Source: Bacteroidales bacterium (GTDB lineage: Bacteria > Bacteroidota > Bacteroidia > Bacteroidales > JAAYJT01). From it: a stretch of 64,000 nucleotides of DNA. Below the pieces are notes generated by a model. It had not been told where the DNA came from, searched no databases, and saw only the letters and a program-made list of their open reading frames with translations. A program made the position numbers and the translations under genes. Shown piece by piece: positions 5,786-64,000 of the stretch (position 1 is its first letter; the number at the start of each line of letters is the position of its first letter). The DNA lies in assembly GCA_014860575.1 (NCBI GenBank), contig JACZJK010000026.1, positions 62,001 through 126,000 on the forward strand, given 5' to 3'.

Positions 5786-6761
5786 GAAATTAAACCCCCT
5801 GGTATTAGTAGCGCTGCTCGCAGTATTAATAATTGCCGTGGTAGTTGTTCTGCGAATGGATGCCCGCAAACAAAAAGGCAGCTTTTTGAACGAACTGATC
5901 AATGCTGATCGTGAGAAAACAACAAGCATCATTGTTATTCCTAAAGGAATCGCGGAGGATGCCATTACACTGGAGAAAAACGAAGACCGGTGGATGGTTG
6001 GTTCGCATGGAAAAATGTACCAGGCAAACCGCGAACATATTGCACGCATTTTTGAATCACTTTCGCCGATGATACCTGAACAATTGGTTTCGCGTTCAAA
6101 AGACAGCTGGCCTGAATATGAGATAGAAGATGTTTCGGGAACACGTGTGAAGATATATGAAGGAAAGCGCTTAAGCGGTGACTTTACATACGGTAAACTC
6201 AGTTTCCAGCAACAGATGATGCAGGGACAACAGCGGCCAAAGATCAGCACTTTTGTTCGTCTGCACGATCAGGAGGATGTTTATTCGGTTGATGGTTTTC
6301 TGGGTTCGGCATTTCCTGCGATCACAAAACAATATCGTGATCAGACTGTGATCAGCGTAAATAAAGATGATATCAGCAAAATTTCTATGCAGGGCGCTGG
6401 TGAATATAATTATACGATTTCAAGGGAAGGGACCAATTGGTTACTTAATGGCAATCAGTTAGATTCAGTTATGGTTGAGCATGTTCTGAATTCAATCAGC
6501 AATGCAAACAGCAGCGGTTTTGTGGAGCAGGAATCAGAAGGCCTGCTCAGTGTTCCATCACACCAACTTACGGTTGAAAGAATTGATGCAATTCCTGTTG
6601 AGATCAAAGCATATCCAGCCGATAGTACGCACCAATATTTTATCACCAGTTCCCAGAACCCTGGGGCTGTTTTCAGTGGTTCGCAAAATGAATTGTTTGA
6701 AAGCATCTTTTACCGGGTTACATACTTTTCCGGAAAAGATGCCAGCGATGATTCGCTTTGA
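5772..6761 (+). CDS. DUF4340 domain protein, partner of the Gld ABC transporter
   Basis: A 329-residue protein with one N-terminal membrane anchor (VLVALLAVLIIAVVVVL, about residues 10-26) and a long soluble domain. The fold matches the DUF4340 family by its repeated pattern of short strands around Trp and Tyr (EDRWMVGSHG, EGTNWLLNG, QYRDQTVISV). It starts inside gldG; a second in-frame ATG at 5778 is equally possible. Genes of this family often follow GldG-like genes in bacteria, so it probably is an extracytoplasmic part of the same complex. No enzymatic residues are recognised. Confidence 0.8.
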   Translation: MFMFKKLNPLVLVALLAVLIIAVVVVLRMDARKQKGSFLNELINADREKTTSIIVIPKGIAEDAITLEKNEDRWMVGSHGKMYQANREHIARIFESLSPMIPEQLVSRSKDSWPEYEIEDVSGTRVKIYEGKRLSGDFTYGKLSFQQQMMQGQQRPKISTFVRLHDQEDVYSVDGFLGSAFPAITKQYRDQTVISVNKDDISKISMQGAGEYNYTISREGTNWLLNGNQLDSVMVEHVLNSISNANSSGFVEQESEGLLSVPSHQLTVERIDAIPVEIKAYPADSTHQYFITSSQNPGAVFSGSQNELFESIFYRVTYFSGKDASDDSL

Positions 6762-20114: not shown

Positions 20115-23051
20115 TTATTCAATGATAATCTCATCCACAAACAACCAGGCCTTTCCACCCGCTCCCAAATGCCAGTCGGGTATTGTGCCGAAGTTGGTGG
20201 CCAGCACTTTCATATAGCGGCCTTTGCAGTTCACTTTCGAACCCAATTCCTGAAAGTGATCTGTATAATCATCAATTGCAATCGTGTTCTTGATGTGAGC
20301 CAATTGCTTAAAGTTTTCGCCGTCCTCTGAAACCAGGAAGGTAACATCGTTGGGCATCCATATCCATGAGCGGATTTCCTGCAGGAAACCAGCGCCAACA
20401 TACCGGATGGGCTGAACCTTTCCAAGATCAACCACAGCCTCAAAATCAATGCCCTGGTAGCCGTGCCAGCCACCAAGGCGAAAGTTGGCTGTACCTCTCA
20501 ATCCGTCAATCAGGGCTTCAGGTCCACCGGCATGGTAATTGGCATCCATCGGCGGTTTGATGTCAATGCTGCGGTTGATGTCAATTTTTACAAAATGCCC
20601 TTGCACTGGACTACTGAACCCAAAGCCTTCTTTCCAGGCCACCGCCGTTAACATTGCTGTTTCGCTGAGCGTGATTGGTTCAGAATACCTAAAAGTATTT
20701 TTGCCGGGTGTGGTTCCGTCAAGCGTATAATAGATTTCACAATCCGGGATGATTGTTTCAATTGAAACCTGTACAGGTTCTTTTATGATTGATCCATCGG
20801 CTACCAGGAATGGAACTGGAAGTATAAGTTGTTTATCTATTTGTGAAATCGGAATATCTTCATCACGACTGCCCCAGATTTTATTGGGTTGGCTGCCCAT
20901 CTCAAAATGCAAATGGCCGCCATTCATAATATCCTGATGCGTAATCCATGATTTGGAATAGTTTTCTCCGTTCAATGTGGCTGATTGAATGTAAAAATTA
21001 CTGTTTGAAACATTGTTGGCTGTGATCCTGAAAACATTTCCGTTCTCCAACTGGATTTCCATTTCGGGGAACCAGGGTGTACCAATTACGTATTCCGGAG
21101 CGCCAGGCGTTACCGGGTAAAATCCCATGGCGCTCATGATCAGCCATGCCGACATTTGCCCACAATCCTCGTTTCCAATGAGGCCATCAGGATGAATTGT
21201 GTAAAAATTATCCATGATTTTCCTGACGCGCTGCTGGGTTTTCCAGGGTTGGTTCACAAAATTATAGAGGTAAGCCATGTGGTGGCTTGGTTCGTTGCCA
21301 TGTGCATATTGGCCAATCAATCCCGAAATATCTTTCATATCGCGGCCACTGATATCAATTTCGGTTTCGAACAATTCATCAATTTTAGAAACCAGTTTTT
21401 CCTTGCCTCCATGCATCTCAGCCAAACCAGTTATATCCTGTGGCACGTAAAAACTGTATTGCCAGGAATTCGCCTCGGTGAAATGCCAGTCAACGGTAGT
21501 GGGATCGAAAGGCGTGAGCCAACTGCCATTCAGTCTTGGGCGCATAAAGCCGGTTTCAGGGTCGAAAATATTTTTATAGGATTGCGCCCGGCGAAGGTAT
21601 TCGTGGTAAATTTCTTCATTGCCCAGGTCGCGGGCCATCATGGCGATGCACCAGTCGTTAAATGCGTATTCAAGGGTTTTGGAAATGGATTCATGTTCCA
21701 TGTTGCCGGGAATGTAGCCATGTTTCTGGTAAACATTAAGTCCGAAATGGTCGCGGGTGGCGCTGTGGATCATGGCTTGCAAGGCTTTTTCGCCATCAAA
21801 ACCACGCAGACCTTTCATCCACGCATCAGCAATTACCGATACACTGTGGTTGCCAATCATGCAATATGTTTCATTGGCAGCTAACTCCCAGATGGGTAAC
21901 AGCCCGCCTTTTTCATACATATCCAGCATCACATGAATAAAATCTCGGGTGCGATCCTGCTCAATGATGGTCATCAACGGATGCCAGGCGCGGTATGTAT
22001 CCCAAAGTGAGAACACGGTGTAATTGGTGAAATCCTCAGCAGCATAGATCTTTTTATCCATGCCACGATATCGCCGGTCAACATCCATGAAGGTATTGGG
22101 TTGGAGGAAAGCATGGTACATTGCTGTGTAAAACACCATGTTCTGATCCTGATTTCCTCCTTTCACCTTTATTTTGCTCAATTCCTGATTCCAGGCTTCG
22201 TAACTGTTTTGCCTTACTTGTTCAAAGCCCCAGCCTGGCACTTCAGCCATCAGGTTTTTATAAGCGCCTTCGGCATCCACGGCTGAGAGGCCAACTTTTA
22301 TTTCAATCATTTCGTCTTTTTCGGTTTCGAACCCAACAAAGGCTTTAATATTCTGGCCTTCAGCACTGAAAATCCCCGGATTAACAATATCATCCACTGC
22401 AATGCCGCTGCGTTCAAAAGGTTTTGAGAACACCATGTGAAAATACCACACCATGTCTTCGGCCCAATTTCTTGAACGCCGCATGCCGCGGATTTCGGTA
22501 TCGCTTACTATCTCTATCCAGGACTCCATTACAGGGTCACGGTGTTTGAAGTCAATGATGAAATTGGCTTCATCGCTTACCGGGAAAGTATAACGGTGAT
22601 ATCCTACTCGGGTTGTAGCCGTCATTTCAGCTAAAACGTTTGGTTTGTCAAGAAATACGCTGTAATAAGCCGCTTCGGCATGTTCGTTTTCTTTTTTGAA
22701 AGGAGAACTGTATTCTGTGTTTTGAAAAACCGGTTCACCCACTACCGGCATAACAAGAATATCGCCGTAATCGCTGACACCGGTTCCACTTAAAGCAGTG
22801 TGCGCAAAGCCATACAGGATACTGTCGGTATAATGATAACCTGAGCAGCCGTCCCAACCATCAAGCCGGGTTTGCGGACTCAACTGCACCATCCCAAAAG
22901 GCGTAGCTGCTCCTGGATAGGTGTGTCCATGTCCACCAGTTCCGATGAAGGGATTGACGTAGGAAGCGGGATCGCTGGGTTCTTTATCAATTTTGCATGT
23001 TGAAAGAACTAATGCCAGGATCAAAAGCGGAAAAATCAGTTTTTTAGTCAT
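20115..23051 (-). CDS. GH92 alpha-mannosidase, lipoprotein, with C-terminal carbohydrate-binding modules
   Basis: A 978-residue lipoprotein (VLSTC lipobox at about 15-19). The GH92 family start YVNPFIGTGGHGHTYPGA is at about 30-47, with further family blocks DCGQMSAW and MIGNHSVSVIADAW. GH92 enzymes are Ca2+-dependent exo-alpha-mannosidases acting on N-glycans. After the catalytic region (about 30-725) comes a chitobiase/hexosaminidase C-terminal-type domain (about 750-810, YTLDGTTPG) and a discoidin-like module (about 825-978) ending LFVDEIIIE. Very similar endings occur in the GH20 and DUF4838 proteins of this window. It probably acts at the cell surface or in the periplasm next to the GH2 beta-mannosidase, 157 bp upstream on the same strand. 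Confidence 0.92.
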   Translation of the reverse strand: MTKKLIFPLLILALVLSTCKIDKEPSDPASYVNPFIGTGGHGHTYPGAATPFGMVQLSPQTRLDGWDGCSGYHYTDSILYGFAHTALSGTGVSDYGDILVMPVVGEPVFQNTEYSSPFKKENEHAEAAYYSVFLDKPNVLAEMTATTRVGYHRYTFPVSDEANFIIDFKHRDPVMESWIEIVSDTEIRGMRRSRNWAEDMVWYFHMVFSKPFERSGIAVDDIVNPGIFSAEGQNIKAFVGFETEKDEMIEIKVGLSAVDAEGAYKNLMAEVPGWGFEQVRQNSYEAWNQELSKIKVKGGNQDQNMVFYTAMYHAFLQPNTFMDVDRRYRGMDKKIYAAEDFTNYTVFSLWDTYRAWHPLMTIIEQDRTRDFIHVMLDMYEKGGLLPIWELAANETYCMIGNHSVSVIADAWMKGLRGFDGEKALQAMIHSATRDHFGLNVYQKHGYIPGNMEHESISKTLEYAFNDWCIAMMARDLGNEEIYHEYLRRAQSYKNIFDPETGFMRPRLNGSWLTPFDPTTVDWHFTEANSWQYSFYVPQDITGLAEMHGGKEKLVSKIDELFETEIDISGRDMKDISGLIGQYAHGNEPSHHMAYLYNFVNQPWKTQQRVRKIMDNFYTIHPDGLIGNEDCGQMSAWLIMSAMGFYPVTPGAPEYVIGTPWFPEMEIQLENGNVFRITANNVSNSNFYIQSATLNGENYSKSWITHQDIMNGGHLHFEMGSQPNKIWGSRDEDIPISQIDKQLILPVPFLVADGSIIKEPVQVSIETIIPDCEIYYTLDGTTPGKNTFRYSEPITLSETAMLTAVAWKEGFGFSSPVQGHFVKIDINRSIDIKPPMDANYHAGGPEALIDGLRGTANFRLGGWHGYQGIDFEAVVDLGKVQPIRYVGAGFLQEIRSWIWMPNDVTFLVSEDGENFKQLAHIKNTIAIDDYTDHFQELGSKVNCKGRYMKVLATNFGTIPDWHLGAGGKAWLFVDEIIIE

Positions 23052-23135
23052 ATTGTTTAATTTTACATAACGGAATCTTCATATAGCTGTACTGCTGGAG
23101 AATAGCTCAAAAATTAGTATTTTGCAGGAAACCTT

Positions 23136-23168
23136 CCCCCTTTGAAAAAGGGGGTTAGGGGGATTTAC
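23136..23168 (-). repeat. C-rich palindromic dispersed repeat, copy 1
   Basis: The perfect palindrome CCCCCTTT-gaa-AAAGGGGG at 23136-23154 is followed by ttagggggatt. Read on the minus strand it matches the repeat at 57736-57765 nearly base for base. It lies in the spacer between the GH2 and GH92 genes. It has the look of a REP-like mobile palindrome. Confidence 0.6.
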
Positions 23169-23208
23169 AACAAAAATTAAGGAGTACTGATAAATGTAGG
23201 ACATAATC

Positions 23209-25791
23209 TTAATTATTCATTAAATAGTCGCGCAAGGAGCAAACATTCAACTGCGACTCAAACTCCATTAAAGATAATGTGGAATTACAAAACACCACCT
23301 TCTCTTCACCAGGCCAAAGATGAAAGAAATTATCATCAAACCAGGCATGGCTGTCGCTTAGGTACAATTGCACGTGGGCGGCGAAAGCATTGCTCGTAAG
23401 CTTTATCAGATATCCGTCTTCGGTAGACTGAATCTCGTAATCAATTAATGCCAACGGTAAATTCAAATTCCCGAGGGTTTCGAGGAATTTCTCATTTTGA
23501 TAAATTTCTCCTGATAGTGTTTCGAACCTTGCCCGAACCAGCCATTCAGCAGGATTGATGTTTTCTCTAAGTTCTGACGAAGAAACTGTAAATGCGTGGG
23601 TTGATTTATTGGTTTCCAAAACTATGGGTTCAGAAAATTGAACCTGGGCTTGGCCTTCAAAGTTTACTAATGAAATGTACAGATTTCCGCTCGTGGGTTC
23701 GAGCCGGTCAGAAACAAGAAATACTTTTAAACTGTCCTGGTGTTCAATCACTGAAACTATGATGTCATCGTACAAATCCCTTACTTTGTATTGAAGGGCT
23801 TTCCAATTGCCATTCACATCCGTAGCCGACCAGCTTGTAACCGGCCAGCAATCGTTCAACTGCCAGTAAAGGGTTCCCATGCAGCGGGGCATGACGCGGC
23901 GGTGCGCTTCAATGGCCAGGCCAATGCCTTTTGCCTGAACCATCTGACTCAGATAAATAAATTCCTGAACCGATTCCGGGTAGAGGTTTTCCCTTTCAAG
24001 ATAGGTGCTGATGGTATGGTAACCTGTTGGATGTTTTTGGTGACATTTGAGGGGATCAGAGAAAAGGAAATCATCTTCCGGCTCCTGAAATTGCCTGATG
24101 GTAGCCAGGGCGGGCATGGCCTGAAAACCATATTCGCTCATAAAGCGCGGGACTTTTTCGAGATACATTTCAAAAGGCTGCAAGCCCCACCATACACCCC
24201 AATAATGGGCGCTGCCTTCTTTCAGGCTTTCTTCACGGCCCCAGCCATGCATTGGTGAGGTGGAAAGGTAAGTACGCTGAGGGTCATATTTATTGACAAC
24301 GCCAGGAAGCAAATCATGAAAAACCCGCTTGTAGCCTTCCCAAATCGTGGCAGAGTCTTTTGGTGAGATGTCAAGTGTCCGCTGCCATTGCCAATTGTGC
24401 CAGCCTTCGTCAGCTTCGTTATTACCACACCACAATGCAATGTTGCTATGATTTCTCAGTCGCTTGACTTGATAGATGGCCTCCTGCCTGACATTCTCAA
24501 CAAAAGCATTATGGCCGGGATACATCGCGCAGGCGAACATGAAATCATGCCAAACCAGCAAACCGTGGCGGTTGCAGAGTTCGTAGAAAATATCCTTTTC
24601 ATAAATTCCGCCGCCCCAAACACGCAACATGTTCATGTTAGATGCAACAGCCATATCTATAATGGCCTGGTAATCTTCGTCCTGCACTTCGGTGACAAAA
24701 CTGTGCTGTGGAATATAATTGGCACCTTTCATAAACACGGGCACATTGTTCAGCTTCACATACAAGGAGTTGCCGAATTCATCATCTTCGGTCACCACTT
24801 CGAGTGTGCGGATGCCGTATGGAATACTTTGCTCAAAAGTTTTACCCGAGGCGGTTTCTATTACAAATTCCAACTCATACAAATGTTGTTCGCCTAGTCC
24901 GTTTGTCCACCAGAGAATGGGATTTATGATAGAAAAATCCAGGGCGTACTCATTCACACCTGGCTCCAGCTTGATTTCCTCTGCAGCCAGTTGCTGACCA
25001 TTGCCGGCGTTTATTACTCTCAGGCTTGCGTTCTCAGCCCTTGCTGATTCAACGGTAAAAGTACTTTGCAAATCAGCCTTTTGATTCGTGACGCTTTTAG
25101 TGACTACGTGAATGTCTTCAACTTTATGCGAATCCCATGCTTCCAGGTAAACCGGTTTCCAGATTCCGGCAGTTACGAATTTTGGCCCCCAATCCCAGCC
25201 AAAATGATAGGCAGCCTTGCGACTTTGGTTCCAGCGTCCGCCAGGCAGCGGATAGCCTAAAGCAATTGAATCCTGTAAGAAACGGTTTTCGGCTGATTCA
25301 AAGATTATTTCAAGGACATTTCCCCCTTCTTTCAGGAATTCCTTACAGTTGATTTCCCATTTGCGGAACATATTGTTGGCTTCCAGTATTTTATTGTCGT
25401 TCAGAGAAACTACGGCATAGGTGTCAAGTCCTTCAAAAACCAGGTTTACCTTAGATTTTTCCAACAGGCTCGCATCAACCTGGAAAGTGGTCCGGTAAAC
25501 CCAATCTGTTTGGCCGATCCATTGTAAATTTTTTTCGTTGCAGCCGTAAAAAGGATCAGGGATCTGATTGTTTTTTAACAAATCGGTGTGAACCGTACCG
25601 GGCACGATAGCCGGATTCCATTCTTCCTGACCGGATTGGCTGAATTCCCAGTTATGCATCAGTTCAAAGCGCTCACCAAGAGGTGCATCGTTTATATTGC
25701 AGGCAGGAAGAATGAATATTAATAAGAAACGAGAAAGCCATATCATTGACCGTTCACGTTTGCCAGGCAGCGACTTCTTACTAAGAATCAT
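23209..25791 (-). CDS. GH2 beta-mannosidase
   Basis: An 860-residue secreted enzyme of the ManA-like GH2 branch. Signal region: hydrophobic residues 17-29 with a possible lipobox LPAC, so an alternative start is the ATG at 25746. The GH2 sugar-binding domain (about 50-220) has FEGLDTYAVVSLN and KAAYHFGWDWGPKF. The TIM-barrel acid/base Glu lies in CGNNEADEGWHNW (near residue 459), and the nucleophile Glu in MSEYGFQAMP. RVWGGGIYE is a typical beta-mannosidase signature. It would cut the Man-beta-1,4-GlcNAc bond of the N-glycan core after GH92 trimming. It is on the same strand as GH92 and probably in the same operon. Confidence 0.9.
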   Translation of the reverse strand: MILSKKSLPGKRERSMIWLSRFLLIFILPACNINDAPLGERFELMHNWEFSQSGQEEWNPAIVPGTVHTDLLKNNQIPDPFYGCNEKNLQWIGQTDWVYRTTFQVDASLLEKSKVNLVFEGLDTYAVVSLNDNKILEANNMFRKWEINCKEFLKEGGNVLEIIFESAENRFLQDSIALGYPLPGGRWNQSRKAAYHFGWDWGPKFVTAGIWKPVYLEAWDSHKVEDIHVVTKSVTNQKADLQSTFTVESARAENASLRVINAGNGQQLAAEEIKLEPGVNEYALDFSIINPILWWTNGLGEQHLYELEFVIETASGKTFEQSIPYGIRTLEVVTEDDEFGNSLYVKLNNVPVFMKGANYIPQHSFVTEVQDEDYQAIIDMAVASNMNMLRVWGGGIYEKDIFYELCNRHGLLVWHDFMFACAMYPGHNAFVENVRQEAIYQVKRLRNHSNIALWCGNNEADEGWHNWQWQRTLDISPKDSATIWEGYKRVFHDLLPGVVNKYDPQRTYLSTSPMHGWGREESLKEGSAHYWGVWWGLQPFEMYLEKVPRFMSEYGFQAMPALATIRQFQEPEDDFLFSDPLKCHQKHPTGYHTISTYLERENLYPESVQEFIYLSQMVQAKGIGLAIEAHRRVMPRCMGTLYWQLNDCWPVTSWSATDVNGNWKALQYKVRDLYDDIIVSVIEHQDSLKVFLVSDRLEPTSGNLYISLVNFEGQAQVQFSEPIVLETNKSTHAFTVSSSELRENINPAEWLVRARFETLSGEIYQNEKFLETLGNLNLPLALIDYEIQSTEDGYLIKLTSNAFAAHVQLYLSDSHAWFDDNFFHLWPGEEKVVFCNSTLSLMEFESQLNVCSLRDYLMNN

Positions 25792-34352: not shown

Positions 34353-36680
34353 TTACCTCACAATTATTTCACTCACAAACAACCACGATTTCTGACCTTC
34401 GCCGCTGTGGCCGGGTGGACAGGTACCGGGGTTTTTCATGCTGACGCGGATAGCTGTGATATTTTCGGCGGATTGGGTGGTTTTATAATGCTTGATCAGT
34501 TTACCTTTTTCATCTTGTGGGATATCAGTAGCAATCTCATCCAGCTTACGAAAGCTGCTGCCATCTTCTGACACTTCAAAAACAACTTTCTCAGGCAAAA
34601 ATATCCAGGAAGCATAGTTTTGCAGGGCGTCCACTTCAATGGAAGATATGTCTGTGAGCTTCTGAAATCGGATTGTAGCGATCATATCATCTCCCAGGAA
34701 ACCTTTCCAGAAACCATCATTAAAATGCTTGCTACCACTTATTCCATCAACCAGGCTGTATGCTCCTGTGCCGTCGTATTTTGTACTGGTGGGATATTGT
34801 AGTTCTACTTCAGTGGCGAAAGCTTTATGCAAGTCAAATGAGCGTTCCAGGATCTGATTTGTACTTATACCATTTAGAAAAACTGCTACTTTCAGGGTAG
34901 CGCTCTCATTTATCTCTACCGGGCGTTTATACATTGGTGAATTAGATCCGGGAATACTGCCATCAAGTGTGTACCGAATTTTGGAATCATTAACTTCAGT
35001 AATTAAGCTGAGAACCAGGCTGCGATTAGTAGGATTAACTTCAGGTTTAACGCTTACCTGGAAAGCGCTTTGCGAGTAATTGATGCCGAGTCGTTTGTAA
35101 CGCCTGTATTGGTGTTCCATTCTCCGGGAAAAATCTGCCCAGTTTCGGGTTTCTTTAGGCGACCAGACCACTTCTGCCATCGCCGCGAGCCGCGGAAAAA
35201 CCATGTATTCAACATGGGCCTTTGTTGGCATGTACTCAGTCCACACATTTGCCTGGGCGCCAAGAACCAGTTTGGCTTCCTCAGCAGTAAGTTCAGTGGG
35301 GATGGGTTCGTAATTATAAACCTTTTTCAGGGTTGTATTGCCGCCAATTGCCAGTGGTTCAATAGCCGGATCTCCCTGGTAATGATCGAAGTAACAATGG
35401 CTGCCAGGTGTCATAACAACATGATGGCCCATTTTGGCCGCTTCAATGCCACCCTGCTCGCCACGCCATGACATAACGCTTGCATTGGGAGCCAATCCGC
35501 CTTCGAGAATCTCATCCCAGCCGATGATCTTGCGGCCGTGTTCGTTCAGGAAGCGTTCAATTCTCTGAATGAAATAGCTTTGCAGGCCATCTTCATCAGC
35601 AAGGTTTTCATTCTTGATCCTTGCCTGGCATTTCGTGCAGGAGCGCCAGTTTGTTTTGTCGGCTTCATCGCCACCAATATGAATGTATTCTGATGGAAAC
35701 AAGTCCATGACCTCCAGAAGTACATTCTCGAGAAACGTGAAAGTTTCATCTTTGCCGGCGCAATAAATATGTGTGATGGGCCAGACACCACCCGGAGGAA
35801 CACCGAGATTCTCGCCGGTACAGGAAAGTTCAGGATAGGCTGCGAGGGCTGACATTACATGGGCGGGCATCTCAATTTCAGGCACAACGGTAATGTTGCG
35901 TTCATCAGCATAAGCTACCAGCGCCCTGATTTCATCCTGTGTGTAAAACCCACCATAACTTGCATTTTCAGTGTCGTTGATCAATGGCCTTTCATTCCAA
36001 TGCAGGTGCAACATATCCACCCGCCAGGCGCCCACTCCGGTAAGTTTTGGATATTTTTTAATTTCGAGCCGCCAGCCCTGATCGTCAACCAGATGCCAGT
36101 GAAACACATTGAGTTTGTGCATGGCCATGTAGTCCATCAATTTATACATGAACTCAAGCGGCATGAAATGGCGGGAAACATCCAGATGCAGTCCACGCCA
36201 GGCAAAACGCGGATAATCTTTGATAAAGCACGAAGGCAAAACACGAATGTTTTCTGAATCCATCAGTTGGGTGATGGTTTGAATGCCATAAAGAATTCCT
36301 GCAGGTGTATTGGCTGACAGGACTGCTTTTTCCGAATTTATTTCCAGGATGTAACCTTCATTTCCAATTTCCATTTCCGGGTTCTCTAAAAGTCTAAAAG
36401 CGATGGAATTCTTGCTCTCTGATCCGATTTTTTGTTCAACATCAGGCTTGTATCCATGAATAGGTTCCCATAATGCTGCTGCATACTGTGCTGAAAAATC
36501 CAGGCTTTTATCCTCACAGATCAGTTTAGTGTCCTGATTAAAATTAAAGGTTCCTTTATTGAAACGGATTTCAACAGGCTGAGGAATGATGCTGGTTTGG
36601 AAATTTTGTTGATGATTTTTGCAAGTAATAAAGGATGTGATCAAATAGCAATAGAAAAAAAGCCGGAGTGTATTTTTCAT
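34353..36680 (-). CDS. GH20 beta-N-acetylhexosaminidase with C-terminal modules
   Basis: A 775-residue secreted enzyme (hydrophobic signal at 6-19, Cys at 20). GH20b domain is about 30-150 and the catalytic barrel about 155-520. The acid/base pair is in HIGGDEADKTNW (Asp338, Glu339), and HWHLVDDQGWRLEIKKYP and MSWRGEQGG are family blocks. C-terminal parts are a chitobiase C-terminal-type domain (about 555-620) and a discoidin-like module (about 630-775) ending LFVSEIIVR. It removes terminal beta-GlcNAc or GalNAc from glycans. The fucosidase gene lies 54 bp upstream on the same strand. Confidence 0.93.
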   Translation of the reverse strand: MKNTLRLFFYCYLITSFITCKNHQQNFQTSIIPQPVEIRFNKGTFNFNQDTKLICEDKSLDFSAQYAAALWEPIHGYKPDVEQKIGSESKNSIAFRLLENPEMEIGNEGYILEINSEKAVLSANTPAGILYGIQTITQLMDSENIRVLPSCFIKDYPRFAWRGLHLDVSRHFMPLEFMYKLMDYMAMHKLNVFHWHLVDDQGWRLEIKKYPKLTGVGAWRVDMLHLHWNERPLINDTENASYGGFYTQDEIRALVAYADERNITVVPEIEMPAHVMSALAAYPELSCTGENLGVPPGGVWPITHIYCAGKDETFTFLENVLLEVMDLFPSEYIHIGGDEADKTNWRSCTKCQARIKNENLADEDGLQSYFIQRIERFLNEHGRKIIGWDEILEGGLAPNASVMSWRGEQGGIEAAKMGHHVVMTPGSHCYFDHYQGDPAIEPLAIGGNTTLKKVYNYEPIPTELTAEEAKLVLGAQANVWTEYMPTKAHVEYMVFPRLAAMAEVVWSPKETRNWADFSRRMEHQYRRYKRLGINYSQSAFQVSVKPEVNPTNRSLVLSLITEVNDSKIRYTLDGSIPGSNSPMYKRPVEINESATLKVAVFLNGISTNQILERSFDLHKAFATEVELQYPTSTKYDGTGAYSLVDGISGSKHFNDGFWKGFLGDDMIATIRFQKLTDISSIEVDALQNYASWIFLPEKVVFEVSEDGSSFRKLDEIATDIPQDEKGKLIKHYKTTQSAENITAIRVSMKNPGTCPPGHSGEGQKSWLFVSEIIVR

Positions 36681-36734
36681 AATTAATTGGTTTATCAGGG
36701 CCTCAATCCCTTTCGGGCTTGGATCCCTTTTGAT

Positions 36735-38561
36735 TTACCTGTAATTTTCAATTCTGAACGTCCATGCCTCATGGCCGGGCATTTCGCTATAGAGTACCTG
36801 GCTGGTGTCAATCAGCAACAGGCCGTTTTCATATTTCCAGGGCAGGTTTCCGGGCCTGCCAAGCAGGCTGATAGCAGTTCCGGGGGCCGGTTCCGGAATG
36901 GGCAATGCAAGTTCCTGCTCTGGCCACTCAAAGCAAATAACATATAAGTTGCCGTGATTGGTGGTGTAAGCAATATGCTGGCGCATGGATTTGTAAGTGG
37001 CGTTCAGACCATTGCCTTGTTTTATTTCTGTAGAAGTAAAAAGGTTTTTCTGCGGAACCACTTCCCGCTCCTGTGAAGGACTTTCCCAGAACAATGTGAT
37101 ATGCGCATTCTGAATGGATTCGTAATATTCTACCCTGATGGAATATTTCCTGCCTTTATCCAGCCTGATCTTTCCCGACGCCGAATCATTGATTTCCTCA
37201 CGCATTGCTTCCGAATCCGTACCTTCAGATTCGGGTTCCCACATATCCATTACCAGGCGTTCATCAATATACAGTTTCATGCCATCGTCAATAAGGGCGG
37301 AGAATAGGTATTCCTCGCTGAAATCTGCAGCGATATATCCTGTCCAGGTGGCAGTGAAATGGTCTTCAACAACAGGATAACCCGGAGAATTGCGTACCAA
37401 ATTAAAATTTATCTGTGGGTCAATCTGCTCCAGCCTTACTTCTTTCTCTTCCCCGCTTCTTATCCATTTTTCCGAACCATAAATGGCTTCTTCATTGATA
37501 CGTATCCACTCGCCCAGCTTTTCAATTCTTTCCTGCTGCAACAGCGGTATCTTGCCATCTGCAGCCGGGCCAACATTGATGGTGAGGCCGCCGCCATATG
37601 CTACGGTTCGCACGAAAAGATGGATTAATTCAGCCGGAGTTTTAAAAGCATTCAGCTTTTCGTTGCGGTTCAGGCCAAAAGAGCGGCCAAGCCCGCGCAC
37701 TTCAGCCCAGGGACGGTCGGTTTCAATGCCACCCGAACTGTATTCAGGTGTGATGAAGCCAATATCACTGCCATGGCCCCATCGATCGTTGACAATTGCG
37801 TCGTTGCCTACCAGGTCATAATACCACGCAATCAGTTCGCGGGCATGCCAGTCTTCGGCTGTGTTGAACCATTCTCCGTCAGTAAACAGCAAATCGGGTT
37901 TGTAGGTTCCAACCAGCTCTTTGAATTGCGGGATCATATGCTGCTCCACGTAGGTGTGAATGGAATCATGCGGATCGGTGTACCAGCGGTGCAGGCGATG
38001 GTTCCATTCGGCCAGGGAATAATAGAGGCCAAGGCGAATATCCTTTGCCCGCACTGCTTCAGCCAGTTCGCCAACGATATCGCGTTTGGGTCCCACATCA
38101 ACACTGTTCCAGCCAGGGGCATACTTGCTCGGCCAAAGGCAAAAGCCGTCGTGATGTTTTGAAACCAGGATGATGTATTTTGCTCCGGCTTTTTCAAAAA
38201 TTTCTGCCCATTCGTTTGGGTCGAACAACTCGGCTTTCCAGAGCGGGGCAAAATCTTCGTAGGCAAAATCTTCACCGAAATTGTTTTTCATGAAATCTAT
38301 CCGGTTCTGAGCGCCGGCCTGCAAACCCCGCAAATACCATTCGGCGTAAGATTCAGGGCCACCATAAGATGGCACCGAGTAAACACCCCAGTGAATAAAA
38401 ACGCCCAACTTTGCATCCTTAAACCATTTCGGATAAGGTCGGGAACGGAGGGATTCCCAGGAAACGGTATTTTGAGCCTCAGTCTGACCGCTTTGCGAAT
38501 AAACCGAAAAAGCCAGTAGAAATAAAATTCCCGAAAGGCAAGCGCTTGTTAATGATTTCAT
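36735..38561 (-). CDS. GH29 alpha-L-fucosidase with PA14 domain
   Basis: About 608 residues from the ATG at 38561 (an upstream ATG at 38585 is less likely because the signal peptide fits better from 38561). Signal peptide at 1-23 (ends VYSQ). GH29 blocks are WFKDAKLGVFIHWGVYSVP, YIILVSKHHDGFCLW and LLFTDGEWFNTAED, whose Asp (about 228) is the expected nucleophile. A PA14-like domain follows at about 385-500 (IRLDKGRKYSIRVEYYES), perhaps for carbohydrate binding. It cleaves alpha-fucose, for example from core or antennary N-glycan positions. It is transcribed toward GH20 and diverges from the esterase gene. Confidence 0.92.
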   Translation of the reverse strand: MKSLTSACLSGILFLLAFSVYSQSGQTEAQNTVSWESLRSRPYPKWFKDAKLGVFIHWGVYSVPSYGGPESYAEWYLRGLQAGAQNRIDFMKNNFGEDFAYEDFAPLWKAELFDPNEWAEIFEKAGAKYIILVSKHHDGFCLWPSKYAPGWNSVDVGPKRDIVGELAEAVRAKDIRLGLYYSLAEWNHRLHRWYTDPHDSIHTYVEQHMIPQFKELVGTYKPDLLFTDGEWFNTAEDWHARELIAWYYDLVGNDAIVNDRWGHGSDIGFITPEYSSGGIETDRPWAEVRGLGRSFGLNRNEKLNAFKTPAELIHLFVRTVAYGGGLTINVGPAADGKIPLLQQERIEKLGEWIRINEEAIYGSEKWIRSGEEKEVRLEQIDPQINFNLVRNSPGYPVVEDHFTATWTGYIAADFSEEYLFSALIDDGMKLYIDERLVMDMWEPESEGTDSEAMREEINDSASGKIRLDKGRKYSIRVEYYESIQNAHITLFWESPSQEREVVPQKNLFTSTEIKQGNGLNATYKSMRQHIAYTTNHGNLYVICFEWPEQELALPIPEPAPGTAISLLGRPGNLPWKYENGLLLIDTSQVLYSEMPGHEAWTFRIENYR

Positions 38562-38668
38562 TGTACCTAAACGTTTGGTTCGCAAAAAAAATGGGTTGGC
38601 GTATGCCTGGGTTGTCTATTTTTGTTTGCTCAATTTTCCGAACGCAAATTATAAAAGAATTTCATACC

Positions 38669-54473: not shown

Positions 54474-56699
54474 TTATCGAACCACAATCTCATCCACAAA
54501 CACCCATGATCCGCCGCCTGCCGATGGGTGCCAATCGAAAAGCTGCAGCGTTCCTTTGATCTCAAATTTCACAAAGCGGTATTTCATATTTTGAACCTGA
54601 AAACTGAAAAGCCTGTTGACTTCCTCTTTTCTCTGGTCGCCTTCCACAATTTGCTTTGCAATTGTTTTATAGTTAGTGCCATCCGCTGAAACCATGCAGG
54701 TGACGGAAGCCGGATGCAGAATCCAGCTTTTGGGGTCGTACAAAGTGCTGATCTCGATGGTGGTTGCTTCAACAGTATCTTCAAGATCAAGAACCAGCGA
54801 GAAATCTCTGGCTTCCCAGCCCAGCCAGTGTACCTTGAAATCGTTAGCGCCCCGCACGCCATTGGTCAGCATGGACAGGGCGCCGGCACTGTATTTTGAG
54901 GCCGGTAGGGGAGAAGCCGTCAATTGTTTGCGAAAGGCAAGGTTGCCTTTCACCTGAACATCAATAAACCTGTTGGTGGACTGGTAATATTGCTCCACCG
55001 TAAAGCCCGCCTCATTTACAAAGGCAGCATTGCTTTGTATGCCGCTTTGATAGAATGATTCAAGGATTTCAAGCATTTGCCGGCGTGGTACAAAATTATC
55101 GGCGGTTTCCTCATACCAGCCCCGAGGCCCGAACATGTCTGCCTTGCCAATTTCCATGACGGCGTATTGCAGCGCCATGCGGGCGGTTCGTACATGAAGC
55201 AGGAATTCTGGTATTTCAGCAACGGCTTTTTCGGCTTCGTTAAAATAATGATTGTATTGCTCAATATTGGCCGCTGAAAGGAAAGTAAGCTGGTGGTTGG
55301 TTGGCGGACCGTAAATATCAAGCCATTCGCCGGTTTTCAGAATTTCATCCTGAAGGTGATTAATATATTTTCTGATCCAAACGCCGGCAGGGCCGTAAAA
55401 TCCATCCGTGAACTCATGAATAAGGGCGGGCACATCGGCATCGGAGTTCCACAGCAATTTGGCCAGCAACCAGGATTTAAGTTCGGAAAACTCATGTCCG
55501 ACCCCGGTGTTTGACTGCTGGAAATGTTCTTTTACGTTGTTGCCGGCAAACAGTTGAATATTGGCTTGCAGCGTATGCAAATTTGGAAACGGACTGATGT
55601 GGTGGGAAAAATTAACCGTGTAATCCCACAGGAAAATATGCTTGCTGATTTTTCCCCAATCTTCAAGATCTTTCAGAAATGAACTGCTTCGCGGATCACC
55701 AGCAATTGCCTCACCACGGTTCAATTCAATGGTGCAAAGCATGATCTGCAAATTATCCAGCGGCTTTGTTAGGGCGGGTGCCTGGCGACTGTATTGATAA
55801 GCGAGTGTGGAGATGATTTTGTCAGGGAAATGACCGGCCACGCGGTTCGCAAAATAGATAATTGGCCCGGAAGCGCTTTTTTCAGCCTCAATGATCTTCA
55901 TGCAGTTTTCGCATTGGCAATAAGAAAAGTTGTCGTCCTGGCTCACCGACCAGACCTGCTTTTCGGGTTGCAGCAGCATTTCCTTTTCCAATTTTTTGAG
56001 AACCAATTGAAAAACATCTTCATTGGTAAGGCAAAGCTGGTCAATGATGCGTTTGCCGTTCATAAATGCAAAATACTCCGGGTTTGATTTGAAGTATTCC
56101 TGCCAGGGCACGAGCCGGTGAAAGGTGTGCACAAAATAGCTTTCGGCAAACATATCGCTGATATCATGCAGACGATGGAAGTCTTTATAATTCGGGTCTT
56201 TGACAAAATCCCCGTTAATGTTGCGGTACGTATTGGGTGAAGCGCCGGAAATCTGCATTGCCGGGATCGTTATGTCCTTCTGTTCAGGGATCACAACAAA
56301 ATGTGGACTGTAATATTTCACGCCCAGGTATTGTTCAAGCAATTCGCTTACGCCGTAAATACAACCTCTGGCTTGTCCTCCCTCAATGAAAAGATTGTTT
56401 CCTTTTGTGAAAATCTTAAACCCATCGCCATATAATATTTCATTGCATTTTGAAATAAGAATGGCATACTTTGAAACCTGCTCATCTGTGCGAACCATCG
56501 GTAACATGCAGCCAGATATTTTTTGAATATGCTCCTGCAGAAAATTGGCGGCCCTTTCTTCTTCTGGTGATGCTTTTTCAGGAATTACGAGGGTGTATTT
56601 GCTTTTTCCGTTGTTTACGAGATAAATGGAATCAGGATATTTCGGCAAGCAGGCTGACAAGGCAATTGTAGTGATCAGCAAGAGGATTGTTGGCTTCAT
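54474..56699 (-). CDS. DUF4838 lipoprotein with C-terminal discoidin-like module
   Basis: A 741-residue lipoprotein (TIALSAC lipobox at about 11-17). The N-terminal alpha-glucuronidase/GH20b-like domain (about 30-130) ends in YGVSELLEQYLGVKYYSP. DUF4838 covers about 195-490 (FSYCQCENCMKIIEAEKS, LWDYTVNFSHHISPFPNL, YGPAGVWIRKYINHLQDEI). The last 150 residues are a discoidin-like module ending WVFVDEIVVR, very like those of GH92 and GH20 here. DUF4838 genes are common in polysaccharide loci but the activity is unproven. It may be an unrecognised glycan hydrolase. It is on the GH3/GH29 strand. Confidence 0.8.
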   Translation of the reverse strand: MKPTILLLITTIALSACLPKYPDSIYLVNNGKSKYTLVIPEKASPEEERAANFLQEHIQKISGCMLPMVRTDEQVSKYAILISKCNEILYGDGFKIFTKGNNLFIEGGQARGCIYGVSELLEQYLGVKYYSPHFVVIPEQKDITIPAMQISGASPNTYRNINGDFVKDPNYKDFHRLHDISDMFAESYFVHTFHRLVPWQEYFKSNPEYFAFMNGKRIIDQLCLTNEDVFQLVLKKLEKEMLLQPEKQVWSVSQDDNFSYCQCENCMKIIEAEKSASGPIIYFANRVAGHFPDKIISTLAYQYSRQAPALTKPLDNLQIMLCTIELNRGEAIAGDPRSSSFLKDLEDWGKISKHIFLWDYTVNFSHHISPFPNLHTLQANIQLFAGNNVKEHFQQSNTGVGHEFSELKSWLLAKLLWNSDADVPALIHEFTDGFYGPAGVWIRKYINHLQDEILKTGEWLDIYGPPTNHQLTFLSAANIEQYNHYFNEAEKAVAEIPEFLLHVRTARMALQYAVMEIGKADMFGPRGWYEETADNFVPRRQMLEILESFYQSGIQSNAAFVNEAGFTVEQYYQSTNRFIDVQVKGNLAFRKQLTASPLPASKYSAGALSMLTNGVRGANDFKVHWLGWEARDFSLVLDLEDTVEATTIEISTLYDPKSWILHPASVTCMVSADGTNYKTIAKQIVEGDQRKEEVNRLFSFQVQNMKYRFVKFEIKGTLQLFDWHPSAGGGSWVFVDEIVVR

Positions 56700-57892: not shown

Positions 57893-60397
57893 TTACTGCA
57901 CAATCAGCTTCAGCACCTCGTTCTTTTCAGGCGTTTGAACCATTAGCAGGTACATGCCTTTGGGGTAAGCTGACAGATCAAGCTGCATAGCGTTACCGTT
58001 CCACTCAGATTGTTGAAGAAGCAGCCCTGTCATGTTCAGAATTCTGACTGTTGAAGTTTGCATTTGGTTCGCATTTGAAACAGAAAGCTCAAACAAACCA
58101 TTGCTTGGATTGGGTTTAACATTCAAACGAGTAACCAGATCCGGATTCTTTGTGCCAACAAAAAAGTCATCTGAAAATACAACCAGGTTGCATGCCACTT
58201 CTAGGTTCGGATTAAAGCCATCATCACAATCGGTGCAGGTTACACCGGTAACGCAATCCGGATGGTTTGGGTGGCAGAAGTCAACATAATTTTCGAAAAA
58301 TACATATTCCAGGTTCACACTGCCAGCTGAAATGAAAGGGGTCATATTGAAAGTGAACCAGGGCGCTATTGCACCTGGGCACCATCCGGCCCGGTTATGA
58401 TACCATGTTCCGTTTTGCGGCTGACAGCCATCGGGGTTTGGGTTACAGACATTCCAGTTGGCCTGTGTAAATGTTTGCGAACCGTTTACCCAAATGTGGT
58501 GGGTGGCATTGTAGAATTCCGCCGCATTTCCTGTGTTCAGAGTTCCCCAGCCGTGACCGGTTGAAACAAGTTTCAGGGTCGAAGCCAGTGCATTGTCGGG
58601 ATATTGAAATTCCCAATCTTCAACCGGCTGCAGGTTGGCATAATCGCCAAACTGGTAATTGTCTTTCCACACCTCATATACGGTGCTGTACAAATAAGTT
58701 GGGTTGCCCTTGCGATAGTTAAACGACAACTTATACTCAAAACCATTATCAAAAGTTATACAGTTGAAACGGAAGTTTACCTTGCCATGCAAGAGCGATG
58801 CATAATCAGTTAAATCAATAGAGTGCGAACACGGAACTCCATAGGGTGTGATGTACCGGATGAGTTCGAACCAAGTTCCATCGTGGCCCTTCACATCGAT
58901 GCTCGCAAGGCGGTCCCATTCGCCACAGCCGCCTGATGGGCAGCTAACCTCAAGGTGAGCAGTGATTTGATCAAACGAACCTAAAAACGATGGCAATTCC
59001 GATTCAACTACAACACTAGCTATTGCTGTGTGAAGCCAAACATCTTCAGCGGCAATGACTTCAACATCAGTAGTTGGGGCAACCACATTAATATTTACTG
59101 TTTGAACTGTACTTGCATAAAAGTTATTGCTCGCAGAGATTTCAATTATGTGATTACCATAAAAAGGTGGAGTCCACCACGCTGTATAATATCCATTATT
59201 CAACGGATCTTGAGCTGGTATAAGTTGACCGCCGACCAGGAAATGTACCTCATCAACCCAGAATAATTCCGGATATTGTATGGTAACAAGAGCAGTAAGT
59301 CGCACAGCTGAAAGCGTTGAAACATAAACATCGCCGGCCAAAGGATGACGGGGATCAATATCCGGAAAATGTAAGTCAGGATTTATTACCTGGAAATGGT
59401 TCACCACAGGTACTGCAGGATCAAACTGATCATTGCCAGGTTGTGTAGCCTGTACACTTACAGTGCCCGCCTGACCGGTAAGTGTTACCAGATTACCTTC
59501 AATGGTGGCCGGTCCTGAAAGAACTTCGAAAATCACTTCCAGCCCCGATGTGGCCGTAGCTTCAATTTCGAATGGAGGATCAATGGTGAGATGATTGGCT
59601 ATTTGTGGAAAAGAAATGGCCTGGTAGCCCGGATCGAGTGTACCGTTGAAGTTGGAGGTTGCACCCGTCAAAGCAAAGTTAAGCAGTTCTCCGTTGCGTT
59701 CACCATTTCCTATTTCGCAAATCAGCTGTGTGATGGCTGTGTTATCTCCGCCGGGTTCACCCTGATTGAATTTGTAATACAACTCCAAGCCATTTTCATT
59801 GCCGGTGAGTTCATTGTTCATGATATCCTGGATTTCCTGTTGCGTCAGGGCGCGGTTCCATGCAGTGACTTCATCAATTCGTCCGCCAAAGTAAAAGTCG
59901 AGGCTACTCAAAAAGCTTCTTCCTATGGCGAATGGCACATCGGTTCCCTGGAAAACACCGGACGCCGTAGCACTTCCTTTCAGCAAGCCGTTTACGTAGA
60001 GTTTAACTGAACTTCCATCATAAATCCATGCAATATGCTGCCAGATCTGGGGAATGGCAGTATTTGCCGGTGAAACATATTCCCACAAACCCGTGGTTGA
60101 TTTGAGCCGGCATTCCAGCACACCGTTGTTGAGTTGGATAATATAAAATTCTGCATTTCCTGAACCTATCCTGAACCCAAAGTAACCCTGGCCATAAGCC
60201 AATTGGTCGCAGTAAAACCAGCCGGTCATTGAAATCTGTGAACTTCCCGAGAGGTATTGCGAACCATTTTGCAGCATGACGTGGTCATTCACTCCATCGA
60301 AATGCAGGTATTGATTCGATTGCGCAAGGATCATAAGCGATTGCAGGCTGAAAACCAGCGCAAGCAGTAAGCGAAATGTGTAGTTGTTCTTTTTCAT
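57893..60397 (-). CDS. LamG / PNGase F-like T9SS-exported protein
   Basis: An 834-residue protein with a signal peptide (1-25). A LamG-like concanavalin domain is at about 28-195 (FDGVNDHVMLQN, RIDEVTAWNRALTQQEI), then Ig-like regions (about 265-440). From about 445 to 745 it resembles the peptide-N-glycosidase F fold: CGEWDRLAS with Asp495 at the catalytic Asp60 position, LIRYITPYG, STGHGWG, and NRAGWCPGAIAPW. By eye the second acidic residue (Glu118 of PNGase F) is not conserved, while the equivalent of Glu206 (LEYVFF) is. A type A sorting domain ends it. It may free N-glycans from proteins at the cell surface, beside SusCD. Confidence 0.82.
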   Translation of the reverse strand: MKKNNYTFRLLLALVFSLQSLMILAQSNQYLHFDGVNDHVMLQNGSQYLSGSSQISMTGWFYCDQLAYGQGYFGFRIGSGNAEFYIIQLNNGVLECRLKSTTGLWEYVSPANTAIPQIWQHIAWIYDGSSVKLYVNGLLKGSATASGVFQGTDVPFAIGRSFLSSLDFYFGGRIDEVTAWNRALTQQEIQDIMNNELTGNENGLELYYKFNQGEPGGDNTAITQLICEIGNGERNGELLNFALTGATSNFNGTLDPGYQAISFPQIANHLTIDPPFEIEATATSGLEVIFEVLSGPATIEGNLVTLTGQAGTVSVQATQPGNDQFDPAVPVVNHFQVINPDLHFPDIDPRHPLAGDVYVSTLSAVRLTALVTIQYPELFWVDEVHFLVGGQLIPAQDPLNNGYYTAWWTPPFYGNHIIEISASNNFYASTVQTVNINVVAPTTDVEVIAAEDVWLHTAIASVVVESELPSFLGSFDQITAHLEVSCPSGGCGEWDRLASIDVKGHDGTWFELIRYITPYGVPCSHSIDLTDYASLLHGKVNFRFNCITFDNGFEYKLSFNYRKGNPTYLYSTVYEVWKDNYQFGDYANLQPVEDWEFQYPDNALASTLKLVSTGHGWGTLNTGNAAEFYNATHHIWVNGSQTFTQANWNVCNPNPDGCQPQNGTWYHNRAGWCPGAIAPWFTFNMTPFISAGSVNLEYVFFENYVDFCHPNHPDCVTGVTCTDCDDGFNPNLEVACNLVVFSDDFFVGTKNPDLVTRLNVKPNPSNGLFELSVSNANQMQTSTVRILNMTGLLLQQSEWNGNAMQLDLSAYPKGMYLLMVQTPEKNEVLKLIVQ

Positions 60398-62596: not shown

Positions 62597-64000
62597 TCAA
62601 AACCCCGCGCTAACCCCAACTACAAAGCTCCGTGTTCCCGGGAACGAAGCCCATTCAAATCCCTGTGCATTTCCTGAGCCCATAATTCCTTCCGGGTTGA
62701 TTTTATCGGGTAGGGTCGTATAAAAATAAAACAGATCACGGCCTGTTAACGTTAGGGTCAGATTTTGAAAAACCCTTGTTGATGCTGCCATTTTTTGTGG
62801 GAGTGTGTATGCCAGTGAAACTTCACGCATTTTTACCCAGGTGTTTTCAATAATGCCGGGAGTGGAGATAATCTTGCCCCACCCGCCGGCATTAGGCAGG
62901 TACTTGTAGTAATAGTGAACCACTGTATTATTGGGAGTTCCATCCTCATGAACCCCTTCGAGTATTATTCCAATATTGCTTGTATTCCCAGCCGGATCGG
63001 TATAGGGCAATCCGCCTCCCTCGCGTTCTTTAAGTGTTTCAGGGCTTTGGCCGGTTTGCAGGCCGATTACGTATGATCCGCAGTAAATATCGCCGCCCCA
63101 TTTGGTGTCAATCAGCATCCCGAATCTGAAGTTTTTATAGCTGACATGGGTGTTCCATCCGGCGATAAAATCAGGTGAGGCATTTCCGATCGGCACTCGG
63201 GTATCGGTAATCAGGTATTTGGTTCCTTCAGCGTTCACAATGCGGTTGCCGTTATCGTCATATAAGTAATCAAAACCGCTGATGGTTCCATAATCATCGC
63301 CTTCGCTCAGGATCATTGCCGGTCCGTTGAGCCCCCAGATGTCAGCCAGCAAATATGCATCGGCAGCGCCACCAAGGCTAACCACTTTGTTGCGGTTGTG
63401 CGCCAGATTGATTCCGGTTCGTACGGTAAGATTTTTTAACCTGACAGGAACAGTGTTCAGTATTACTTCAAATCCCCGGTTCGTAACGATGCCTTCGTTG
63501 GTCATAATATTGAATGCGCCTGATGAAGCCGGCAAAGGCAGGTTCGGAATGATCTGATCAAAAGAGTAGAAATAATAATATGTGAGGTCGAGGTCAATAC
63601 GGTTGTCAAAGAATCCAAGTGTGATACCTGTTTCGTAAGCGTTTACACGTTGTGGCTTGAGATCCAGCGGTGGTATGGTTCCCGGGAAGCCCGATGCCTG
63701 TTGCCCGCCAAAAAGGCTTGTGGTATAGTAAAAATTTCGCAGATAAGGCGCTGCATCAGTGGCTGACTGTGCGATCCCACCCCGGATTTTCATAAAATTG
63801 AACCAGGGGTGGCGGGCGGTAATATTAAATGCTTCGGTCGGGATGAAGCTAAGCGAAACAGAAGGATAGAAATACGAATTGCTTGAAGGAGGCAATGATG
63901 ACGACCAGTCGTTGCGCCCGGTGATTTCAAGGAAAAGATAATTGTCATAGGCCAGGTTCAGGAAAGAATAAACAGAGTTGTTTCTTTTACGCAAAACCCC
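62597..64000 (-). CDS. SusC/RagA-family TonB-dependent transporter (5' end cut by window edge)
   Basis: Partial: about 468 C-terminal residues; the frame runs to the right edge and has no real start inside the window. The visible part is SusC beta-barrel: LFLEITGRNDWSSSLPPSSN, YFYPSVSLSFIPTEAF, VNAYETGITLGFFDNRIDLDLTYY and the end WASFPGTRSFVVGVSAGF. With SusD it forms the outer membrane glycan importer powered by TonB. It is transcribed toward susD and the PNGase-like gene. Confidence 0.93.
   Translation of the reverse strand, partial: GVLRKRNNSVYSFLNLAYDNYLFLEITGRNDWSSSLPPSSNSYFYPSVSLSFIPTEAFNITARHPWFNFMKIRGGIAQSATDAAPYLRNFYYTTSLFGGQQASGFPGTIPPLDLKPQRVNAYETGITLGFFDNRIDLDLTYYYFYSFDQIIPNLPLPASSGAFNIMTNEGIVTNRGFEVILNTVPVRLKNLTVRTGINLAHNRNKVVSLGGAADAYLLADIWGLNGPAMILSEGDDYGTISGFDYLYDDNGNRIVNAEGTKYLITDTRVPIGNASPDFIAGWNTHVSYKNFRFGMLIDTKWGGDIYCGSYVIGLQTGQSPETLKEREGGGLPYTDPAGNTSNIGIILEGVHEDGTPNNTVVHYYYKYLPNAGGWGKIISTPGIIENTWVKMREVSLAYTLPQKMAASTRVFQNLTLTLTGRDLFYFYTTLPDKINPEGIMGSGNAQGFEWASFPGTRSFVVGVSAGF

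What the first reader, a model, noticed from the sequence alone, without database searches (positions are those of the whole stretch)
57893..60397. LamG-fused PNGase F-like protein with a changed active-site residue
The PNGase F-like half keeps the CGEWDR block, whose Asp is the catalytic Asp60 of PNGase F, and the family NRAGWCPG block. By hand alignment the position of Glu118 (TETW in PNGase F) reads CITF, so one acidic residue appears missing. An N-terminal LamG domain and a T9SS sorting domain are added. This may be a glycan amidase with altered mechanism or substrate, or a binding protein.
Basis: partly seen in the sequence, partly recalled or inferred. Interest (0 to 1): 0.7.

Follow-up and report, generated by a model that had tools for sequence, protein, structure and literature searches.

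The report
Surface PNGase with hypervariable glycan-binding residue
This is most likely a working, cell-surface bacterial enzyme that cuts sugar chains off proteins; the 'missing' active-site residue is not part of the chemistry but a sugar-binding position that its relatives swap freely, so it probably changes which sugar chains are accepted rather than whether the enzyme works.

Summary
ORF 57893-60397 (minus strand, 834 aa) is signal-like segment, LamG, Ig-like region, PNGase F-like domain and T9SS tail. The PNGase F Glu118 position reads Ile547 (CITF). The inference of a missing catalytic acid does not hold: the catalytic pair Asp60/Glu206 is present (Asp495, Glu627), and the AlphaFold model matches PNGase F best (TM 0.79-0.83). 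In 126 unique relatives Asp60 and Glu206 never vary, whereas site 118 takes 15 residues or is deleted; among 87 close relatives it is the most variable of 314 columns, beside the invariant Arg543, Asp550 and Gly552. Active characterised PNGases also lack Glu there (Ala in zebrafish Ngly2, Gly in 7ZGN, Asp in BF0811). The gene is third in a conserved SusC-SusD-PNGase operon (21/21 sampled loci; 67/71 in a second, overlapping set) of uncultured Bacteroidales. Best reading: a secreted surface peptide:N-glycanase that frees N-glycans for SusCD import, with a remodelled second-GlcNAc subsite (Glu118 to Ile, Trp120 to Phe). It is a new, coherent variant of the PNGase F superfamily, not a new mechanism. 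No activity was or could be tested here.

The parts
57893..60397 (-). complete 834-aa ORF: LamG / Ig-like / PNGase F-like / T9SS protein
60320..60397 (-). N-terminal signal-like segment, residues 1-26
   Evidence: hydrophobic helix H2-19 in the model; cleavage site not computed
59828..60298 (-). LamG (Laminin_G_3) domain, residues 34-190
   Evidence: Pfam E 3.9e-27; shared by the LamG clade, replaced by another module in sister paralogues
59078..59632 (-). Ig-like beta region, residues 256-440
   Evidence: beta strands in the model; no Pfam hit above cut-off
58172..59065 (-). PNGase F-like catalytic domain, residues 445-742
58913..58915 (-). Asp495 = PNGase F Asp60 (catalytic)
   Evidence: invariant 126/126
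58757..58759 (-). Ile547 = PNGase F Glu118 position (hypervariable)
58751..58753 (-). Phe549 = PNGase F Trp120 position (Leu in most relatives)
58553..58555 (-). His615, the TGHG histidine that accompanies the catalytic Glu in most PNGases
   Evidence: 86/87 in the clade; PMC12381499
58517..58519 (-). Glu627 = PNGase F Glu206 (catalytic partner)
   Evidence: invariant 126/126
58373..58396 (-). NRAGWCPG signature, residues 668-675
58208..58288 (-). Cys-rich insert (residues 704-730), conserved in the family and beyond the aligned part of PNGase F
57896..58114 (-). T9SS type A sorting domain, residues 762-834
   Evidence: PF18962, TIGR04183
60654..62282 (-). SusD-like lipoprotein, second gene of the conserved triad
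   Evidence: Pfam; synteny
62597..64000 (-). SusC/RagA TonB-linked porin (C-terminal part; continues past the window into L140)
   Evidence: synteny

Best explanation
The protein is a catalytically competent peptide:N-glycanase of the PNGase F superfamily. It is secreted by the type IX system, probably held on the cell surface, and works with the SusC/SusD pair encoded just upstream: it hydrolyses the GlcNAc-Asn bond of glycoproteins with the Asp495/Glu627 pair, and SusCD imports the released glycan for breakdown by the cell's glycosidases. Replacing Glu118 by Ile and Trp120 by Phe remodels the loop that in PNGase F contacts the second core GlcNAc. This should change or loosen core recognition, for example by admitting core decorations that PNGase F rejects, and not the chemistry. 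Shown: sequence, fold (predicted), conservation and operon. Inferred: catalysis, substrate, import and specificity.
For: Fold: AF2 mean pLDDT 86.7; top PDB matches are PNGase F (TMt 0.79-0.83), then PNGF-II, 7ZGN, Ngly2 and 3KS7. Catalytic residues: Asp60 and Glu206 in 126/126 relatives, Trp59 W/Y in 126/126, Arg61 R in 106/126. Site 118: at least 24 residue changes on the tree and at least 8 between Glu and non-Glu; entropy rank 1 of 314; rate rank 8 of 318. Active homologues with non-Glu at the aligned position: Ngly2 Ala and 7ZGN Gly, 3KS7 Asp. In Ngly2, D421A and E555A lose all activity (PMC12753239). Six active PNGases have open space around GlcNAc2 C6 and GlcNAc1 C3, matching activity on core alpha1,3-fucose (PMC12381499). 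Operon: SusC-SusD-PNGase in 21/21 loci and 67/71 of an overlapping set. The window also holds GH92, GH2 mannosidase-type, GH20 and two GH29 genes. GH92 occurs in 42/43 genomes with the family against 217/350 without.
Against: No activity has been measured for any family member identified here. Trp120, whose counterpart Trp480 matters in Ngly2 (W480A only feebly active, PMC12753239), is also lost (Phe here, Leu in 85/126), so recognition of a chitobiose core may be weak or the substrate may differ. In the published figure I recall, E118Q kept only about 0.1% activity in PNGase F. The neighbouring GH3 looks xylosidase/glucosidase-like, and the local glycosidases are not conserved beside relatives. 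The GH92 association ignores phylogeny and genome size.
Confidence: 0.75

Rival explanations
1. It is an amidase of the same chemistry whose substrate is not the standard eukaryotic GlcNAc2-core N-glycan but another Asn-linked glycan (archaeal, bacterial or algal), so the second-GlcNAc subsite is obsolete.
For: Both GlcNAc2-contact residues (118 and 120) are replaced, and site 118 is free to vary; hosts are environmental uncultured Bacteroidales.
Against: GlcNAc1 contacts Trp59 and Arg61 are kept; GH92 and GH20 accompany it in the genome; active eukaryotic-N-glycan PNGases also vary at 118.
Confidence: 0.13
2. It is a non-catalytic surface glycan-binding protein, as the third gene after SusCD often is, that uses the PNGase fold and LamG to capture glycoproteins.
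For: Position after SusC-SusD; LamG module; loss of two substrate-contact residues.
Against: Asp60 and Glu206 are invariant in 126 relatives while the binding residue is the one that varies; a dead enzyme kept for binding would be expected to show the opposite pattern.
Confidence: 0.07
3. The loss of Glu118 changes the catalytic mechanism, with another acid such as Asp550 taking over.
For: Asp550 is invariant in the C-x-T clade and three residues from Ile547.
Against: Asp550 is equally present in the 12 clade members that keep Glu at 547, so it is not a replacement; Glu118 is not a mechanistic residue as far as I recall from Kuhn 1995.
Confidence: 0.03

Closest known systems
PNGase F of Elizabethkingia meningoseptica (1PGS, 1PNF, 3PMS)
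   Same: Double jelly-roll fold, Asp60, Glu206, Trp59, Arg61, RAGWCPG block
   Different: About 25% identity; Glu118 to Ile, Trp120 to Phe, the Trp191 region carries the TGHG His; extra LamG, Ig-like, Cys-rich insert and T9SS tail; SusCD operon
PNGaseDo (Draconibacterium orientale) and PNGaseL (Flavobacterium akiainvivens), PMC12381499
   Same: Bacteroidota, T9SS tail, accessory beta modules (Do), varied contacts around GlcNAc2 C6
Zebrafish Ngly2 acid PNGase (9LWG), PMC12753239
   Same: PNGase F-type domain with the Asp/Glu pair, non-Glu at position 118, accessory N-terminal domains
   Different: Acid pH enzyme, PA and Tx-like domains, keeps the Trp at position 120
PNGF-II (4R4X) and Phocaeicola massiliensis PNGase (7ZGN)
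   Same: Same fold; 7ZGN has Gly at position 118
   Different: N-terminal bowl-like module instead of LamG; pocket for core alpha1,3-fucose; much more distant in sequence

Membership tests
PNGase F superfamily | Double jelly-roll PNGase fold | tested here: met
   AF2 model, PNGase F top PDB hits, TMt 0.79-0.83
PNGase F superfamily | Catalytic Asp60 and Glu206 | tested here: met
   Asp495, Glu627; 126/126 in relatives
PNGase F superfamily | Aromatic-Asp-basic motif on the first GlcNAc (Trp59-Asp-Arg61) | tested here: met
   WDR at 494-496
PNGase F superfamily | N-glycanase_C domain / RAGWCPG block | tested here: met
   Pfam PF09113 E 1.2e-11 over its cut-off; the N-terminal Pfam domain was not hit
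PNGase F proper (PNGase F-like specificity) | Glu118 contact to the second GlcNAc | tested here: not met
   Ile547; not defining for the superfamily, since 7ZGN, 3KS7 and Ngly2 also differ
PNGase F superfamily | Peptide:N-glycanase activity | not testable with these tools
   needs expression and assay
T9SS cargo | C-terminal type A sorting domain and signal peptide | tested here: met
   TIGR04183 and PF18962 over cut-off; N-terminal hydrophobic helix, signal peptide not computed with a dedicated program
Sus-like polysaccharide utilisation locus | Adjacent SusC/SusD pair | tested here: met
Sus-like polysaccharide utilisation locus | Conserved glycosidases for a named glycan in the same locus | tested here: inconclusive
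   GH29, GH3 and DUF4838 lie downstream in the window; not conserved beside the 20 relatives examined

The most novel reading that the evidence does not exclude
In this Bacteroidales clade, residue 547 acts as a fast-evolving specificity dial: one hypervariable residue in an otherwise fixed R-x-x-C-x-T-x-D-N-G loop lets each lineage tune its surface PNGase to a different glycan core, with the partner SusCD pair adapted alongside.
Probability: 0.3. Interest if true: 0.6.

Novelty: new variant of a known kind. Interest (0 to 1): 0.42.

Why it matters
PNGases are the standard tool for releasing N-glycans, and their limits come from core recognition. This clade offers over 80 natural variants that keep the catalytic pair but sample most residue types at one presumed substrate-contact site, an experiment on specificity that nature has already run. 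It also points to a conserved SusC-SusD-PNGase unit, probably for N-glycan foraging, in uncultured environmental Bacteroidales. It argues against treating Glu118 as a required PNGase residue when annotating the superfamily.

Tried and rejected
A single-protein scan of genome contigs found nothing; the alignment scan found 366 relatives. Compensation of Glu118 by Asp550 was rejected because Asp550 is present whether or not Glu is kept. A disulfide between Cys546 and Cys736 was considered: Cys736 is Ser or Ala in 7 of 33 LamG-clade rows while Cys546 is constant, so it is not a fixed pair; no coordinates were available to test it. A local dedicated N-glycan operon was weakened: the neighbouring GH3 resembles xylosidases/glucosidases and GH genes are not conserved near relatives. 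Paper searches for Glu118 with Asp60, and for PNGase with SusD and T9SS, returned none.

Full report
What is there. Window 57893-60397, minus strand, is one intact 834-residue ORF. Pfam gives LamG at 34-190, N-glycanase_C at 593-679 and a T9SS sorting domain from 762 (TIGR04183). phmmer against the PDB aligns residues 475-703 with PNGase F at E about 1e-23, and a profile of 17 relatives at about 1e-42. In both, CGEWDR falls on CDEWDR (Asp495 = Asp60) and CITF on TETW (Ile547 = Glu118).

Fold. AlphaFold2 with a 57-row family alignment gives mean pLDDT 86.7, pTM 0.59. Foldseek against the PDB ranks the four PNGase F entries first, target TM-score 0.79-0.83, followed by PNGF-II, 7ZGN, zebrafish Ngly2 and the B. 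fragilis 3KS7 structure. The test named in the finding therefore gives a clear fold match. Coordinates were not exposed, so whether another acid occupies Glu118's space could not be measured.

What the changed residue means. Relatives came from 393 genomes of the same order (43 with a match), a phylum sample (only one genome outside the order at comparable score, G520) and named genomes (366 relatives, best 80 kept, nearly all uncultured Bacteroidales, some labelled Lentimicrobium or Lentimicrobiaceae). In 126 unique domains Asp60 and Glu206 are invariant and Trp59 is Trp or Tyr, while position 118 is G 21, E 20, A 18, P 16, S 10, V 10, T 6, M 5, Y 4, Q 4 and others, or deleted in 6. In the 87 members with the C-x-T loop, column 547 has the highest entropy of 314 columns (3.28 bits). 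Cys546 and Thr548 are fixed there by the selection rule, but Arg543, Asp550 and Gly552 are invariant without being selected for. With members chosen by their LamG domain and an intact loop instead, column 547 ranks third of 315, and Cys546 and Thr548 are 33 of 33. Its evolutionary rate ranks 8th of 318, close to the top category. On a tree built without that loop, residue 118 changed at least 24 times, and Glu/non-Glu at least 8 times (SH-aLRT support only, root uncertain). So the position is repeatedly replaced in proteins that never lose the catalytic pair.

Characterised enzymes agree. HMMER alignments place Ala (TAPW) at this position in zebrafish Ngly2 and Gly (IGNW) in 7ZGN, and Asp (IDTW) in 3KS7. 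Ngly2 is active, and alanine at the Asp60 and Glu206 equivalents abolishes activity (PMC12753239). These distant alignments could be off by a residue, though the Trp two positions later aligns in all three. [quoted passage not shown] From memory of Kuhn et al. 1995 (not readable here), Glu118 contacts O6 of the second GlcNAc and E118Q keeps about 0.1% activity. The same loop also lost Trp120 (Phe549 here, Leu in 85 of 126), whose counterpart Trp480 matters in Ngly2. The whole second-GlcNAc contact is therefore remodelled, which argues for altered recognition, not altered chemistry.

Architecture and context. Two groups share the catalytic domain, Ig-like region and T9SS tail but differ in the N-terminal module: LamG in the window's clade, an unrelated module without a Pfam name in the others. 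A Cys-rich insert (704-730) is conserved in both. The gene follows SusC and SusD on the same strand in the window and all 20 LamG-clade loci examined (21/21). In a second set, partly the same genomes, 61 of 71 meet a strict adjacency rule and 6 more have the same order with a small gap or an ORF overlap. Several, but not all, of the second group also have it. Tandem paralogues occur (for example three in a row in L153). The GH29, GH3 and DUF4838 genes downstream in the window are not conserved beside relatives. Elsewhere in the window lie GH92, a GH2 with mannosidase Ig domains, GH20 and a second GH29. GH92 is found in 42 of 43 genomes with the family and 217 of 350 without (Fisher p 2e-7), uncorrected for phylogeny or genome size.

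Conclusion. Best supported: a T9SS-exported surface peptide:N-glycanase feeding a SusCD importer, with intact chemistry and changed core recognition. Catalysis, substrate and import are inferences. Whether the hypervariability is tuning of specificity or the drift of an unused subsite is open; both leave the catalytic pair untouched. The finding is a new variant of a known enzyme kind; the hypervariable site in a fixed loop is its most interesting feature.

Noticed in passing
window 20115-25791 and 34353-38585: GH92 alpha-mannosidase next to a GH2 with mannosidase Ig domains, and a GH20 next to a GH29, all minus strand: likely further N-glycan or mannan breakdown genes.
   Followed up: partly
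L140 7311-9506 (same contig, beyond the window): Two tandem propeller-like glycosidases with weak GH32/GH43 Pfam hits; they read like GH130-type mannoside enzymes but no profile confirmed it.
   Followed up: no
window 54474-56699: DUF4838 protein with a GH20b-like and an F5/8C-like region; no named function.
   Followed up: no
L044 (G001:C97 about 5680-6042): A second copy in the nearest relative (same genus) is interrupted by three stop codons, apparently a decaying paralogue.
   Followed up: no
L037, L119, L123, L127 loop region: A sub-branch of the LamG clade has deleted two residues of the loop that holds position 118 (KIV--GLDNG) and has Tyr in place of Arg61 after the catalytic Asp.
   Followed up: partly
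L036, L017, L039 N-terminal about 230 residues: Sister paralogues carry an N-terminal module with no Pfam match in place of LamG.
   Followed up: partly
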